Origin: Spirochaetota bacterium
Lineage (GTDB): Bacteria; Spirochaetota; Brachyspiria; Brachyspirales; JACRPF01
Assembly (NCBI GenBank): GCA_038043445.1
Contig: JBBTBY010000071.1
Location: forward strand, 24,315 to 60,567
DNA length: 36,253 bases
Direction: 5' to 3'
Positions 14,430-22,297 of this stretch are shown here, one piece after another. Below the pieces are notes generated by a model. It made no database searches. It was given only the letters and a program-made list of their open reading frames with translations, and had not been told where the DNA came from. Within the stretch, counting starts at the first letter, position 1. Each line of letters begins with the position of its first letter. The position numbers were made by a program, and so were the translations under genes.

Positions 14430-14906
14430 TTAAGGCTTTTTTGCTCGCTCGATCATCGCCGTCGTCGAATACCCGTCGCGGAAGCTCACCGTTTTCACGC
14501 GTCCGCCGTAGGCGGTGACCGTCGCATATTCGGGAAGTGTTTCCGGTTTGTAGTCCCCGCCCTTCACATGAATGTCGGGCTTAAGGAGCGATAAAGTCTC
14601 TATCGGCGTGTCCTCGGTGAACCAGGTCACAAAGCGCACCGATTCAAGCGCGGCGATCACCGCCATCCTGTCGGCAAGTTTATTGACCGGCCGCGTCGGC
14701 CCTTTCAAACGCACCACCGATGCATCGTCATTAAGCGCGACGACAAGCAATTCCCCGAGCGAGCGGGCCTCGGCGAGATAATCCACATGGCCGCGATGGA
14801 GTATGTCGAAACAGCCGTTGGTGAACACGACCCGTTTCCCCTCGCGGCGAACCGCAGCAAGGAGCGGCGCGAGCTCTTCGCGGCGTATTATCTTTTCCAC
14901 GCTCAT
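14430..14906 (-). CDS. rfaE2: D-glycero-beta-D-manno-heptose 1-phosphate adenylyltransferase
   Basis: A 158-residue stand-alone nucleotidyltransferase matching the C-terminal domain of HldE (RfaE domain II). It transfers AMP from ATP to heptose 1-phosphate in ADP-heptose synthesis for the LPS core or other heptose glycans. VVFTNGCFDILHRGHVDYL contains the HxGH nucleotide-binding motif (37-40). RPVNKLADRMAVIAALESV and VKGGDYKPETLPE are family hallmarks, and YSTTAMIER closes the active site. It is the last gene of the leftward TPR/hflX operon, seven bases after the stop of the voltage-sensor gene. The partner kinase and phosphatase are not in the window. Confidence 0.93.
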   Translation of the reverse strand: MSVEKIIRREELAPLLAAVRREGKRVVFTNGCFDILHRGHVDYLAEARSLGELLVVALNDDASVVRLKGPTRPVNKLADRMAVIAALESVRFVTWFTEDTPIETLSLLKPDIHVKGGDYKPETLPEYATVTAYGGRVKTVSFRDGYSTTAMIERAKKP

Positions 14907-14913
14907 GGGCGGC

Positions 14914-16197
14914 TCACCTGCCGATATGTTTCTTGATATACGCGGCGATGGTCTTCGTGCTCACCGTGACCGCGTCGACGGCGGCGGCCTTCGTCATCGC
15001 GGCGAGCGTATCCGCATCGGCGATCACCTTGCCTGCGAGCGCCTCATCGACAAGACGACGGACCGTATCCGCATCCACACCATGGAGCGTGCCGCTCTCA
15101 ATTTCCGTTCCGGCGGCCGATGGGGAAGCCTCGGAAAGACGGGCGAGTTTCGCCGTCATCTTCACAAGGCTGCGTATCTCATCCTCGCCTTCGATGACCG
15201 CAAGCGACCCGTCGGGCGAAAGCCCGCGCGCCTCCTCTTCGAGGAGCATGTAGTCGTTGGCGTCGATGGAATCGATGATAAGATGCACATGCCGCATATC
15301 ATGCGCAAAAATATAACCCATGTACATGATGATGACAAGGAGTATGCCCACGAGCGTTGCGATGAGGATGAGCATGATAACATCGTGCTTGAACATGAGG
15401 TCGTTGGAAGTGATGACAATGGACGTGAGGGGGAGCTTCACATGCGGCGCAGCGATGAATGACGACGACGAGAGCGGCACAACGACATTCCACTCTATCT
15501 CACCGTGCACCCGGTGGAAAAGATGCTCTATCTCCTTCTGATCGGTGACGGCCGATCCATCGCGGCTGTACACGGCTCCGTCCTCGGTATAGAAAAGCAC
15601 CTTCTGCCCGTAGAACATGCGCGTCATGCCGACATCGCGGTTGAACGCCTCGTTCTTCTGCTGCACCGCCGATACGCGCAGGTCGATGAGATGCTCATAG
15701 GTGAAGTGGTCGGTAAGCGCAATGCCGACGATGAAGACGAGGACGATGGATACGCCTATCTTCATGATGCGTTCTTGCACGAACGCACTGTCGCCTTTCA
15801 TCCGGTTGAGAAAGCTGAATATGCGCAGGAACCTGAGCAGGCGGATTATCTTGAAGAAACGCCCTATGCGGGTGACCTTAAAGGTCGCAAAAAACGACAT
15901 CGCACCCTGGAAAATAAGCGCGATACCGGGAATACTTGCAAGAAGGTCTATCCATCCGTAGCCTTTGAAGAAATACTGCCTGATCGGGAGCGTCGCCATG
16001 CGGACAACGAAATCGAGGACGAAGATGATGTCGATAACGTGGTTGACCATGATAAGCACCGGCACCCCGGAAACAAGCACGGTCTTAAGCGGTGTGAACT
16101 CAAGGATCAGCCCCGCGATGGACACCATGACGATGTACGGGTTCACCGCATCGGCGGCCTTCACCAGGAATGGCAGGCGTAGTGGCTTTATCATCAT
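14914..16197 (-). CDS. Voltage-sensor-domain membrane protein with HAMP-like cytoplasmic region, no visible pore
   Basis: A 427-residue membrane protein that automated pipelines would probably name ion transporter. Helices at about 21-35, 48-70 and 81-100 match S1-S3, with FVLDFVVRM in S2 and GWIDLLASIP in S3. Residues 104-130 form an S4 voltage sensor with Lys107, Arg110, Arg113, Lys116, Arg119, Arg122 and Arg125 at every third position. Instead of a pore loop there is a helix (146-163), a 110-residue loop predicted to lie outside the membrane (164-272) and another helix (273-297). No potassium, sodium or calcium filter motif is seen. After the last helix, 298-355 resembles a HAMP linker, including DEIRSLVKMTAKLA, then a helical tail. 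Voltage sensing coupled to signalling is an inference. The start overlaps the hflX stop by four bases. Confidence 0.7.
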   Translation of the reverse strand: MMIKPLRLPFLVKAADAVNPYIVMVSIAGLILEFTPLKTVLVSGVPVLIMVNHVIDIIFVLDFVVRMATLPIRQYFFKGYGWIDLLASIPGIALIFQGAMSFFATFKVTRIGRFFKIIRLLRFLRIFSFLNRMKGDSAFVQERIMKIGVSIVLVFIVGIALTDHFTYEHLIDLRVSAVQQKNEAFNRDVGMTRMFYGQKVLFYTEDGAVYSRDGSAVTDQKEIEHLFHRVHGEIEWNVVVPLSSSSFIAAPHVKLPLTSIVITSNDLMFKHDVIMLILIATLVGILLVIIMYMGYIFAHDMRHVHLIIDSIDANDYMLLEEEARGLSPDGSLAVIEGEDEIRSLVKMTAKLARLSEASPSAAGTEIESGTLHGVDADTVRRLVDEALAGKVIADADTLAAMTKAAAVDAVTVSTKTIAAYIKKHIGR

Positions 16198-17294
16198 ACG
16201 ATATTCCCCCGGAGCGCAGCGCGCGTTCCCGATTCGGATGACAGTATAATGCCCTTTATCTTTTCTTTCAATTCGTCGATACCCGTCCGCATACGCGCGC
16301 TCACCCGCAGCGCTTCAGGGTTCGCCGTGCGAAGTATCGCGCTTCGGTACTCATCGATACGGTCGCATTTGTTGAATACGACAAGCCGCGGGATGTCGTG
16401 TGCGCCTATCTCGGCAAGTACCGCTTCAACGCTCCGCATATCGCGGTCCACCGCTTCTTTTTCCGCATCGACCACATGCACGAGAAGATCGGCATCCCTC
16501 ACCTCGGCCAGTGTGGACGTGAACGATTCCACAAGCAGGTGCGGAAGATCTGCAATGAAGCCGACGGTATCGCTCACCACCACATCGAGGCGCACATCGT
16601 CCCCGAGATAGAGCTTTCTCGTCGATGTATCGAGCGTTGCGAAGAGCTTGTCCTCCACATAGGCGCTTTCATTGCATAGCGCGTTAAACAGCGTGCTTTT
16701 TCCCGCATTGGTGTAGCCGACAAGGGCGCAGGTGAACGCGTCCTTTCTTGATTTACGCCCGGTCGCCATGTTCTTCACGGCACGCGCAAGATCACGCCGT
16801 ATCGCATGCATTCGCTCGCGGGCATGACGGCGGTCATATTCGAGCTTTGTCTCCCCGGGGCCGCCGAGCTTTCCCGTCACCGCATCGGTGTGCGACATGG
16901 TGGACCATGTGCCCTTAAGCCGCGGGTACTCGAACGTAAGCCGCGCAAGCTCCACCTGCAGCTTCGCAATGTTCGTCCGTGCACGCATGGAGAATATCCG
17001 GAGGATGACATCGGTACGCGTAAGCACGGCGAGCTCGAACATATCCTCAAGATTGAGCCGCTGCGACGGGGAGAGTTCGTTATTGAACACGACCGCTGCC
17101 GCGTTGACCTCACGCGCACGGGCGGCAATGGCCTCGATCTGTCCGGCACCGAGATAATGTTTGGGGTGTATGCGCTGCACGCGGGGCGTTCTCTTTTCCA
17201 CCGCGTTCATGCCGAGCGTGTCGACAAGGAGCGAAAGCTCCGCGAGCGATGTTTCCGCGGACTGCGCCCCTTCCCTGCTGACGATGGCGTGCAC
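16194..17294 (-). CDS. hflX: Ribosome-associated GTPase HflX
   Basis: A 366-residue HflX-type GTPase that binds the 50S subunit and helps rescue or recycle ribosomes. The N-terminal HflX domain has HPKHYLGAGQIE, VVFNNELSPSQRLNLED and TDVILRIFSMRARTNIAKLQ. A coiled segment with GGPGETKLEYDRR follows. The G domain contains the P-loop GYTNAGKSTLFNAL, DTVGFIADLPHLLVESF (G3) and FNKCDRID (G4). The GTG at 17294 is the first standard start codon, but it has no ribosome site and begins inside a beta strand. A CTG at 17321 with GGAGG seven bases upstream would overlap the preceding stop as CTGA and may be the true start (see findings). The 3' end overlaps the voltage-sensor gene by four bases. Confidence 0.93.
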   Translation of the reverse strand: MHAIVSREGAQSAETSLAELSLLVDTLGMNAVEKRTPRVQRIHPKHYLGAGQIEAIAARAREVNAAAVVFNNELSPSQRLNLEDMFELAVLTRTDVILRIFSMRARTNIAKLQVELARLTFEYPRLKGTWSTMSHTDAVTGKLGGPGETKLEYDRRHARERMHAIRRDLARAVKNMATGRKSRKDAFTCALVGYTNAGKSTLFNALCNESAYVEDKLFATLDTSTRKLYLGDDVRLDVVVSDTVGFIADLPHLLVESFTSTLAEVRDADLLVHVVDAEKEAVDRDMRSVEAVLAEIGAHDIPRLVVFNKCDRIDEYRSAILRTANPEALRVSARMRTGIDELKEKIKGIILSSESGTRAALRGNIV

Positions 17295-17317: not shown

Positions 17318-18667
17318 TCAGAAGATATCCTCCCCGTCAAGTGCGGCGGCAAAACGCTCACCGGTGATAAGCTCCACCGGACGGGATGTGATGAACTGAA
17401 AGCACTCCTCGTGAAAATCGAACGGGGTGATGACATACGCCTGCGTTGCATGGCGGTTCTTGATGAGGATGAAAAGCTCGCGCAATTCCTCCTCCACGGA
17501 TATCTGCTTGGGCTTTCTCGTAAAGAGCAGGATGAAGGCGAATTTCATCTGCCCCATCTTGTTCTTCTGACATTGCACGATGATCTCGTCGCCGCTCCTC
17601 ACCTCGAGCGCCTCGACATAGAATTCATGCTGCTCAAGAAAACGGCGGACGAACATCTCGTATTTTTCGTCCGGGAGCGAGAAGAACGATGCGAGGCGAT
17701 TGCTGTTGAATATATGACGGAACAGCGCCATGCGCCCTTTCGCCTCCGGGTGAATGGGACTGACCTTCAATATGCTCTCCCAGATGATGCGCACCTCGTT
17801 GACATTGCGAAGCTTAAGATAGCACTCGGCGAGCGACTCGAGCACGGTGAGATAGAACCGGTCGTTCTCCGGTATCGTAGCAAGGGCTTCCTTCAACACC
17901 TCGGACGCGCCCTCGAATTCATGCATGCCGAAGAGCGACAGGCCTTCGTAGATGATCGATTCCCGATAGCACTCGGCGTTCGCCTTCGCGATGGTGAAAT
18001 TCTTCTGCGCGCGGACGAAATCCTTCAGATCGTAATAGAGGCGCCCGAGCTCTTTGTGCGCCTTGTAGAAATTAGGATCGAGCACGGTGCACATCGTGAA
18101 CATATCGATGCCGCGCTTGATGTCCTTCTGCGCCGCGGCGATGGTGCCGAGCAGGAAGTAGATGTGGGGATTGCGCGAATTGATCTTGATGGCGCGGGAG
18201 AGATACGACTCGGCTATCTGATAATTGCGCTGTTCAAAATACAGTTTGCCGAGCGTGTACAGCGAATCGAAATGGTCGGGCTTCAGATGCACCGCGAACT
18301 GGAGCTCGAGTATCGATTCCTTAAGGCGTCCCGTCTTCTCATAGCAGTAGGCGAGCCCCTCATGGATCTGATACTCCTTGAGGTCGGCCGTATAGCGGCG
18401 GCGCTTCAAGATATCCTGCAGCGCCACCATCGCGAGTATGTACTGCCCCTCGGCGATGTTCGCCTGCGCAAGAAGCCACTTCGCCATGGGGTCGTCGCGC
18501 TGCGATGCGGGGAGTTTATCGACGGCGGCCTTCGCTTCCGCGTACCGCTGACTGTCGATGAGCTCGCGTATGGCTTTCACCTTCCGGGGAAAGATATACC
18601 CCTGATACATTATCATCGCCCAATAGGATACGGCGAGAACGAGTGCTACGAGCAGTACGACCCACAT
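17318..18667 (-). CDS. Membrane-anchored TPR protein with C-terminal Mrr-like domain (paralogue 1)
   Basis: A 449-residue protein. One N-terminal transmembrane helix (about 2-20) is followed by about eight tetratricopeptide-type repeats from about 40 to 320, for example DHFDSLYTLGKLYFEQRNYQIAES wording. The C-terminal 120 residues resemble the restriction-endonuclease-like fold of Mrr proteins, ending AYVITPFDFHEECFQFITSR and PVELITGERFAAAL, the usual last helix and strand of that fold. The catalytic D-(E/Q)xK set is not convincingly present; only an irregular QCQKNK lies at the expected strand. It is therefore more likely a binding than a cutting domain. Same architecture as the protein at 20960-22297. 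First gene of the operon with hflX, the voltage-sensor gene and rfaE2. Function unknown. Confidence 0.8.
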   Translation of the reverse strand: MWVVLLVALVLAVSYWAMIMYQGYIFPRKVKAIRELIDSQRYAEAKAAVDKLPASQRDDPMAKWLLAQANIAEGQYILAMVALQDILKRRRYTADLKEYQIHEGLAYCYEKTGRLKESILELQFAVHLKPDHFDSLYTLGKLYFEQRNYQIAESYLSRAIKINSRNPHIYFLLGTIAAAQKDIKRGIDMFTMCTVLDPNFYKAHKELGRLYYDLKDFVRAQKNFTIAKANAECYRESIIYEGLSLFGMHEFEGASEVLKEALATIPENDRFYLTVLESLAECYLKLRNVNEVRIIWESILKVSPIHPEAKGRMALFRHIFNSNRLASFFSLPDEKYEMFVRRFLEQHEFYVEALEVRSGDEIIVQCQKNKMGQMKFAFILLFTRKPKQISVEEELRELFILIKNRHATQAYVITPFDFHEECFQFITSRPVELITGERFAAALDGEDIF

Positions 18668-20959: not shown

Positions 20960-22297
20960 ATGACGGTCGCGATCGTATTTGCGAGCATAATTGTCGGCAT
21001 CGGCATCATCGTCATATCCCTCGTCATCTCCAGTTACGGCGGCGGGTACCAGAAGGCCGTCGGATTTTTCAACCGCGCCAATTACGATGCCGCCCTTGTC
21101 ATTCTTGAAAAGCTCTCGCGCTCACCATCGGCGAACCCCGACAGCCGCTGGTACCTTGCGCGCACCTATGAAGCGAAACGTTTCTTCGATAAGGCGATAC
21201 GCCTGTACACCGATCTGCTCGTAAAGAAAGTATACTCCGAAGTGTACCGTGAATTCGATGTGCGTACCCGTCTCGCAGAGATATATCTCAAACGCGAAGA
21301 GATCGATGCCGCGGAACGCGAGATCAAGGCCATGGCGAAGCTCAAGCCGGACAGCTCTGCGGTACAGGTGAAGCTCGCCGAGCTTACGCTCGCGAAAGGC
21401 GATTACGCCGCCGGGAGCGTTGCGCTCAAGAAGGCGCTCTCGCTCGACCCGCATAACGGCACCGTCGCCCGCGCGCTCGGCATGGCATATTTCTCGATGG
21501 AAAAACACGCGGAAGCCCTCGCCGTGTTCAGCCGTGCAATAGAGCTCGGCACATCCGATGCAGAAATGTCCTATACCATGGGGCTTGCCGCGCGCGGCAT
21601 AAGCAAATTCGTCGAAGCGGTGCGCTATTTCGACCAGGCGGCGAAGAACCCTGCCTGGTCGCAGCGGGCGCGTCTGAAAGCCGCCATCACCAATTTCGAG
21701 ATAGGCGATCTCACTACGGCCATTCCCATGCTCGAGGATGCGGTCGCCAAGGGCGGCAGCAACGATGATATGCTCGATGCGATGTACATACTCGGACAGG
21801 TACGCACCCGCGAAGGCAAGCTCGATAAGGCGCTTGACCTGTGGCGCCGCATATCGAACATAGACCCTGATTTCCGGGACGTTCCGGAGAAGCTCAAGGA
21901 TTTCGGAAAGATAAAGGGCGTAGGCAACGAGCTCGATTCGCTCCTCATGCTCCCGCTTTCCGATTTCAAGGCGACGCTCATGAAGGTCGCGGAAAAAATG
22001 GGTCACCGTGTCATCAAAGAGATCGTCGACGGCGAGAAGATAATATTCCACACCACCTTCAAGGACGGCACGACCATATTCGAGAACGTCATCGAGGCGG
22101 TGAAATCGGCGAACCCCATCGGCGAGCTCCATATTCGGGAACTGCTCGCACGCATGAAGGACAATCGTGCCGACCGCGGCATCTATTTCGGCCCGGCCGG
22201 ATTCACGGAAGCGGCGCAGAAAGCATCGGAACGCTATGCGGTGGACCTTGTCAGCGGAGAGAAATTCAAGCGCCTGCTCGGCCAGATCAAGCGCTAG
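20960..22297 (+). CDS. Membrane-anchored TPR protein with C-terminal Mrr-like domain (paralogue 2)
   Basis: A 445-residue protein with the same layout as the product of 17318-18667. A transmembrane helix covers about 3-25, tetratricopeptide repeats run from about 28 to 315 (for example SAVQVKLAELTLAKGDYAAG and GTVARALGMAYFSMEKHAEA), and a C-terminal region resembles the Mrr restriction-endonuclease-like fold. That region includes LMKVAEKMGHRVIKEIVDG, a beta hairpin, and the closing YFGPAGFTEAAQKASERYA and VDLVSGEKFKRLL. The metal-binding D-(E/Q)xK residues are missing. GGAGGG lies six to eight bases before the ATG. It is followed by the DksA/TraR-like gene 29 bp later. The role is unknown; a membrane scaffold binding protein or nucleic acid is possible. 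Confidence 0.8.
   Translation: MTVAIVFASIIVGIGIIVISLVISSYGGGYQKAVGFFNRANYDAALVILEKLSRSPSANPDSRWYLARTYEAKRFFDKAIRLYTDLLVKKVYSEVYREFDVRTRLAEIYLKREEIDAAEREIKAMAKLKPDSSAVQVKLAELTLAKGDYAAGSVALKKALSLDPHNGTVARALGMAYFSMEKHAEALAVFSRAIELGTSDAEMSYTMGLAARGISKFVEAVRYFDQAAKNPAWSQRARLKAAITNFEIGDLTTAIPMLEDAVAKGGSNDDMLDAMYILGQVRTREGKLDKALDLWRRISNIDPDFRDVPEKLKDFGKIKGVGNELDSLLMLPLSDFKATLMKVAEKMGHRVIKEIVDGEKIIFHTTFKDGTTIFENVIEAVKSANPIGELHIRELLARMKDNRADRGIYFGPAGFTEAAQKASERYAVDLVSGEKFKRLLGQIKR

What the first reader, a model, noticed from the sequence alone, without database searches (positions are those of the whole stretch)
14914..16197. Voltage-sensor domain joined to an extracytoplasmic loop and HAMP-like linker instead of a pore
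S4 has seven basic residues at exact three-residue spacing, so the voltage-sensor assignment is strong. What follows has no selectivity filter: a 110-residue external loop between two helices, then a HAMP-like segment. This looks like a sensor that could couple membrane potential to signalling rather than conduct ions.
Basis: partly seen in the sequence, partly recalled or inferred. Interest (0 to 1): 0.7.

Follow-up and report, generated by a model that had tools for sequence, protein, structure and literature searches.

The report
Pore-less voltage-sensor receptor of spirochaetes
This gene encodes a spirochaete membrane protein that joins the voltage-sensing half of an ion channel to a receptor-type signalling stem instead of a pore; relatives occur across the phylum, usually beside an unknown partner gene, so these bacteria may read their own membrane voltage as a signal.

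Summary
The 427-aa minus-strand ORF at 14914-16197 is as described. It has a genuine voltage-sensor domain: seven basic S4 residues at exact three-residue spacing (0 of 20,000 segment shuffles), and an invariant F59/D-E62/D84 charge-transfer centre in 49 of 49 aligned members. The pore is replaced by TM5, an extracytoplasmic loop and TM6, then a HAMP-like stem. No aligned member has a selectivity filter; every non-spirochaete database neighbour examined is a K+ channel with T[VI]G[YF]GD.

The architecture is a spirochaete-wide family, found full length in about 50 genomes. The larger subfamily (FAM0) has a HAMP by profile comparison, and its model matches WalK (TM-sensor-TM-HAMP) plus voltage sensors. 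The window's subfamily (FAM7) has a diverged HAMP-like stem with a 10-residue insert; direct HAMP tests fail, so "HAMP" is inferred through FAM0.

Each subfamily co-occurs with its own helical partner of no known family, usually the gene just upstream. One relative fuses voltage sensor, TM5, loop, TM6 and a HAMP-like stretch to an HD-GYP-type domain.

Best reading: a dimeric voltage-gated receptor passing S4 movement through TM5/TM6 and the stem to a partner. Voltage dependence, absence of current and the output are untested. The architecture is undescribed in the papers I could search.

The parts
14914..16197 (-). Voltage-sensor receptor, 427 aa (FAM7 subfamily)
   Evidence: ORF; Ion_trans S1-S4 only; orthologs 68% (G001) and 41% (G040)
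15796..16173 (-). Voltage-sensor domain S1-S4 (residues ~9-134); F59/D62/D84 charge-transfer centre; S4 K107-R125
   Evidence: (alignment to Kv1.2-2.1)
15706..15786 (-). TM5 (residues ~138-164), start of the long helix 138-196
   Evidence: AlphaFold2 model
15382..15705 (-). Extracytoplasmic loop (residues ~165-272); no pore helix or filter
   Evidence: in the FAM0 model the equivalent is helix-helix-strand-strand-helix-strand-strand
15304..15381 (-). TM6 (residues ~273-298)
   Evidence: helix 265-313 in the model
15124..15303 (-). Diverged HAMP-like stem (residues ~299-358): helix 1 'HDMRHVHLIIDSIDANDYMLL', connector with insert, then 'EGEDEIRSLVKMTAKL'
   Evidence: FAM7-FAM0 TM6-stem P 9e-4, FAM0-HAMP P 3.5e-7, FAM7-HAMP no match
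14917..15075 (-). C-terminal helical tail (residues ~375-427) ending 'AVDAVTVSTKTIAAYIKKHIGR'
   Evidence: conserved in FAM7; a similar tail ends the own-genome paralog (C175) and a separate 220-aa protein of G001
16194..17294 (-). HflX GTPase, directly upstream, 4-bp overlap; same order in G001
   Evidence: TIGR03156 3.3e-115
17318..18667 (-). TPR protein with Mrr_cat-like C-terminus, upstream of HflX in the same gene run
14430..14906 (-). HldE-type heptose-1-phosphate adenylyltransferase, directly downstream
   Evidence: TIGR02199 3.7e-59

Best explanation
The gene encodes a pore-less voltage-gated transmembrane receptor. Shown by sequence and model: S1-S4 form a canonical voltage sensor with a complete charge-transfer centre; S4 leads into TM5, which with an extracytoplasmic loop, TM6 and a HAMP or HAMP-like stem forms a receptor-type relay; no selectivity filter exists; and each subfamily co-occurs with its own helical partner protein. 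Inferred: the protein is a homodimer (HAMP stems are dimeric four-helix bundles). A change of membrane potential moves S4, the S4-TM5 junction shifts TM5 against TM6, the stem changes state, and the conformational signal passes to the partner docked on the stem or C-terminal tail (in one natural fusion, to an HD-GYP-type c-di-GMP phosphodiesterase domain). The loop may add a second, periplasmic input, but it is optional because Brevinematales members lack it.
For: S4 run of 6 or more basic residues at i+3 in 47 of 49 members; F59 and D84 49/49; D/E62 49/49. These align with Kv1.2-2.1 F233, E236 and D259 (alignment; Kv numbering from general knowledge and the F233W entry title). No filter in any aligned member, whereas all non-spirochaete neighbours examined have T[VI]G[YF]GD. 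Phylum-wide: 91 of 393 genomes hit, about 50 of them full length. FAM0 TM6-HAMP against own-genome TM-HAMPs P 3.5e-7, reversed control 0.058. The family profile's TM6-HAMP part also hits HAMPs of an MCP, a histidine kinase, a guanylate cyclase and two SpoIIE proteins. FAM0 model (pLDDT 77.6): best PDB hit is a WalK model, 9a5d, prob 1.00; chemoreceptor McpB/C and the Ci-VSP voltage sensor are lower matches. FAM0 partner adjacent upstream in 37 of 50 loci and present in 25 of 28 FAM0 genomes against 1 of 17 without an intact FAM0 receptor; FAM7 partner in 8 of 8 FAM7 genomes, including G000 where it is unlinked, and 0 of 5 without a FAM7 gene. Brevinematales members keep VSD and HAMP but have almost no loop. 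Natural HD-GYP fusion L216.
Against: No functional data. The window's subfamily fails every direct HAMP test. Foldseek E-values are weak (best 0.019), and the WalK target is itself an integrative model. The HD-GYP fusion is a single case in a MAG (85% complete, 6% contaminated), although its GC and tetranucleotide make-up match the MAG. Several lineages keep the two-gene unit but have lost the S4 charges, so the unit has a function that does not need voltage sensing.
Confidence: 0.7

Rival explanations
1. It is an unusual voltage-gated ion channel: TM5 and TM6 line a pore and the loop supplies an unfamiliar filter.
For: S1-S4 belongs to the Ion_trans family, and phmmer aligns part of the loop weakly with the Kv pore region.
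Against: No filter motif in 49 members; the model has a long TM5-to-periplasm helix and a TM6-stem helix; the loop varies widely in length and is almost absent in L056 and L063, which a pore loop could hardly tolerate; the FAM0 stem is HAMP.
Confidence: 0.07
2. It is a voltage-gated proton channel (Hv1-like): the voltage sensor itself conducts.
For: Pore-less VSD with S4 arginines, as in Hv1 (general knowledge).
Against: The mid-S1 Asp that Hv1 needs for proton selectivity is missing: 48 of 49 members have no D/E in the S1 core. Hv1 has no TM5-TM6-HAMP stem. A 2024 review places proton conduction by voltage sensors in eukaryotes (PMC13095418).
Confidence: 0.06
3. The VSD fold is only a structural anchor; the protein is an ordinary periplasmic or membrane-stress receptor.
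For: VSD charges are lost in Borrelia-size genomes, genomes of the window's order and some others while receptor and partner stay together; the own-genome paralog at C175 is also degenerate.
Against: In 47 of 49 aligned members the S4 charges, and in all 49 the charge-transfer centre, are kept although identity to the window protein falls to 14-20%; an anchor would not need them.
Confidence: 0.15

Closest known systems
Voltage-sensing phosphatases (Ci-VSP, TPTE/VSP)
   Same: Pore-less VSD coupled to a cytoplasmic signalling output; the Ci-VSP VSD (4g7y) is among the FAM0 model's weak fold matches.
   Different: VSPs are eukaryotic and run from S4 into a PTEN-like phosphatase; here S4 runs into TM5-loop-TM6-stem, with a separate partner and no phosphatase domain.
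HAMP receptors: sensor histidine kinases (WalK) and chemoreceptors
   Same: TM-extracytoplasmic sensor-TM-HAMP relay.
   Different: No kinase, MCP or cyclase domain in the main family; a VSD precedes the first receptor helix.
Prokaryotic Kv channels (Ion_trans with T[VI]G[YF]GD)
   Same: Homologous S1-S4, including the GWIDxxxSIP motif at S3.
   Different: The channel pore and filter are replaced by the receptor stem.
Hv1 voltage-gated proton channel
   Same: VSD without a separate pore domain.
   Different: No mid-S1 Asp; extra TM5-TM6-HAMP stem.

Membership tests
Ion_trans voltage-sensor domain | S4 with several basic residues at every third position | tested here: met
   Seven in the window protein; 6 or more in 47 of 49 members
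Ion_trans voltage-sensor domain | Charge-transfer centre: aromatic plus acidic in S2, Asp in S3 | tested here: met
   F59, D/E62, D84 in 49 of 49
Voltage-gated cation channel (Ion_trans, full) | S5-P-loop-S6 with selectivity filter | tested here: not met
   Profile match ends at 135 of 241; no filter motif in 49 members
HAMP-domain receptors | Match to HAMP model or profile directly after the last TM | tested here: not met
   For the window's FAM7: PF00672 0 of 49 at E 0.05; profile comparison none. Met by profile for FAM0 (P 3.5e-7)
HAMP-domain receptors | Two amphipathic helices joined by a connector after TM6 | tested here: inconclusive
   Helices 265-313 and 340-357 in a model of mean pLDDT 66; clearer in FAM0, 263-311 and 329-353
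HAMP-domain receptors | Homodimer | not testable with these tools
   No oligomer prediction available
Voltage-sensing phosphatase | C-terminal PTEN-like phosphatase | tested here: not met
   No Pfam domain above its cut-off after the VSD
Hv1 proton channel | Asp in the middle of S1 | tested here: not met
   1 of 49 members has any D/E in the S1 core; the window protein has none
Any voltage sensor | Measured voltage-dependent S4 movement | not testable with these tools
   Needs gating current or voltage-clamp fluorometry

The most novel reading that the evidence does not exclude
Spirochaetes have a dedicated class of membrane-voltage receptors: VSD-TM5-sensor-TM6-HAMP proteins with cognate partner proteins that turn membrane potential into an intracellular signal. 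This would be, to my knowledge, the first non-channel voltage sensor with a signalling role in prokaryotes, and a candidate for the unexplained voltage-dependent chemosensory signalling reported for Spirochaeta aurantia.
Probability: 0.45. Interest if true: 0.92.

Novelty: new variant of a known kind. Interest (0 to 1): 0.78.

Why it matters
Membrane potential is known to vary in bacteria, but I know of no dedicated prokaryotic protein that reads it other than channels; a 2024 review of voltage sensors names non-channel examples only from eukaryotes in the passages I read (PMC13095418). [quoted passage not shown] titles seen in the reference list of PMC4841586). No sensor protein is known to me for that. 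This family offers concrete, testable genes, although a link to chemotaxis is not shown here: CheA is present in 34 of 35 family-positive and 21 of 25 family-negative genomes, a difference that is not significant (p 0.15).

Tried and rejected
Filter search and pore alignment (rejected). Direct HAMP assignment of the window protein by Pfam and profile comparison (failed). Hv1 membership by the S1 Asp (not met). Chemotaxis link by CheA co-occurrence (not significant; G033 has a family gene and no CheA hit). Identity of both partner families by Pfam, PDB sequence search and, for the FAM0 partner, NCBIfam: none convincing. Homology between the two partner families: none found. More VSD-HAMP-HD-GYP fusions: none found among 393 spirochaete genomes. 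A wider out-of-phylum search was not possible because the tool wants genome handles. The VSD tree groups FAM7 (95/96) and separates the Kv channels (100/99) but does not settle whether FAM0 and FAM7 are sisters. Papers on VSD plus HAMP, or voltage sensor plus HD-GYP, in bacteria: none found.

Full report
THE OBSERVATION. The minus-strand ORF 14914-16197 encodes 427 aa. Pfam Ion_trans matches residues 23-157 at E 2.1e-12, covering only the S1-S4 half of the profile. S4 carries K107, R110, R113, K116, R119, R122 and R125. A run of seven basic residues at three-residue spacing appeared in none of 20,000 shuffles of the segment and in one of 20,000 shuffles of the whole protein. phmmer aligns the protein with the Kv1.2-2.1 paddle chimera (E 2.7e-5), placing F59, D62 and D84 on the channel's charge-transfer centre. 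So the voltage-sensor assignment is strong. After S4 there is TM5, about 110 extracytoplasmic residues, TM6 and a cytoplasmic stem. No selectivity filter is present.

A FAMILY, NOT A FREAK. Close orthologs occur in G001 (68%) and G040 (41%). A profile of the first eleven members hits 91 of 393 spirochaete genomes, about 50 of them over the full length. Every spirochaete locus recovered from 84,980 species genomes and read here lacks a filter, while every non-spirochaete neighbour read has T[VI]G[YF]GD, that is, it looks like a K+ channel. That scan used one S3 motif and kept the best 80 of 288 places, so members outside spirochaetes are not excluded. Two subfamilies emerge: FAM0 (large, mostly 350-510 aa) and FAM7 (the window plus seven others). 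In the 49-member alignment F59, F63, Y75, G81, D84 and P90 are invariant, D/E62 is 49/49, and 47 of 49 have six or more S4 charges in register, although identity of FAM0 to the window protein is only 14-21%. Conservation of exactly the charge-transfer residues under such divergence argues that the sensor works.

THE STEM. No member matches Pfam HAMP by single-sequence scan. Profile comparison is clearer: FAM0's TM6-stem matches TM-HAMP segments taken from this genome's own receptors with P 3.5e-7 (reversed control 0.058), in register through the 'DEI..LA..YN' end. The family profile's TM6-HAMP part also picks up genuine HAMPs of a dCache-MCP, a histidine kinase, a guanylate cyclase and two SpoIIE phosphatases. 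The FAM0 model (mean pLDDT 77.6) has two helices, two strands, a helix and two strands in the loop, then a TM6-stem helix and a second stem helix. Its best PDB match is the WalK kinase model 9a5d (prob 1.00, E 0.019); lower matches include chemoreceptors, Kv2.1 and the Ci-VSP voltage sensor. For FAM7 the direct HAMP test fails; its stem aligns with FAM0's at P 9e-4 with about ten extra residues in the connector. 'HAMP-like' is therefore right for the window protein; 'HAMP domain' is an inference through FAM0. The loop is not essential: Brevinematales members L056 and L063 go from TM5 to TM6 with almost no loop and keep VSD and HAMP.

PARTNERS. In 37 of 50 FAM0 loci the gene immediately upstream, usually touching or overlapping, encodes a ~310-aa protein of no Pfam, NCBIfam or PDB family. 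It is present in 25 of 28 FAM0 genomes tested and 1 of 17 without an intact FAM0 receptor (Fisher p 2e-8, not corrected for phylogeny). FAM7 has a different upstream partner, also without convincing relatives. It is present in 8 of 8 FAM7 genomes, including the window's genome (G000:C50) and G001, where it is not adjacent, and in 0 of 5 genomes without a FAM7 gene. In the window the receptor instead lies in a TPR-HflX-receptor-HldE gene run.

OUTPUT. L216 (G080) is a single 576-aa ORF with VSD (Ion_trans 1.4e-17), TM5, a loop, TM6, a HAMP-like stretch read by eye, and HD_5 (7e-25): a natural fusion of this type of sensor to an HD-GYP-type, probably c-di-GMP phosphodiesterase, domain. It is one case in a MAG of 85% completeness and 6% contamination; its GC and tetranucleotide make-up match another contig of the MAG. 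For the window protein the output is most likely the cognate partner, possibly docked on the stem or on the conserved C-terminal helix, but this is inference.

DEGENERATION. Borrelia-size genomes (0.9-1.2 Mb), genomes of the window's order and others keep the receptor-partner pair but have lost the S4 charges. In the Borrelia-size genomes the pair is convergent with a cheA-cheW-cheX-cheY run (these gene names are read from sequence by eye, not by a family search). So the pair has a function beyond voltage sensing, or the voltage input was dropped in these lineages.

MECHANISM. Shown: VSD anatomy, missing pore, receptor stem in FAM0, conserved partners. Inferred: dimer, S4-to-TM5-to-stem coupling, partner output. 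Not shown: voltage dependence, absence of current, physiological role. CheA co-occurrence does not separate family-positive from family-negative genomes (p 0.15), so a chemotaxis role is only a suggestion, attractive because Spirochaeta aurantia chemotaxis was reported to be inhibited by a voltage clamp (reference list of PMC4841586).

NOVELTY. All modules are known and eukaryotic voltage-sensing phosphatases already couple a pore-less VSD to signalling, so I call this a new variant of a known kind. A VSD on a TM-sensor-TM-HAMP stem is not described in the papers I could search, and most subscription papers are not in that library.

Noticed in passing
L158, L160, L161, L164, L172, L182, L183: A cyclic-nucleotide-type K+ channel (Ion_trans plus cNMP_binding in the member scanned, L158:3549-5183) lies directly downstream of the VSD-HAMP gene in seven loci of one family of genomes.
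   Followed up: partly
L240:10019-11922, L241:7722-9625, L242:7325-9231: In Borrelia-size genomes the receptor (S4 charges lost) and its partner are convergent with a cheA-cheW-cheX-cheY run.
   Followed up: partly
L163:6290-7696 (G000:C175): A paralog in the window's own genome keeps VSD-loop-TM topology and the C-terminal tail but has lost most S4 charges; a HAMP protein of 625 aa lies close by on the other strand.
   Followed up: partly
L015:1057-1716 (G001:C6): A 220-aa protein without obvious membrane helices ends in the same kind of tail ('VAIEAVKVSTKSIVEYLKK') as the window protein; possible shared docking or assembly module.
   Followed up: partly
window 17318-18667 (-) and 20960-22297 (+): Two paralogous TPR proteins with an Mrr_cat-like (restriction endonuclease fold) C-terminus.
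   Followed up: no
L059, L095, L098: Members that keep VSD, TM5, loop and TM6 but end before the HAMP.
   Followed up: no
L268, L269, L221: A further subfamily with Ion_trans-like S1-S4 poor in S4 charges, a loop, TM6 and a HAMP-like end.
   Followed up: no
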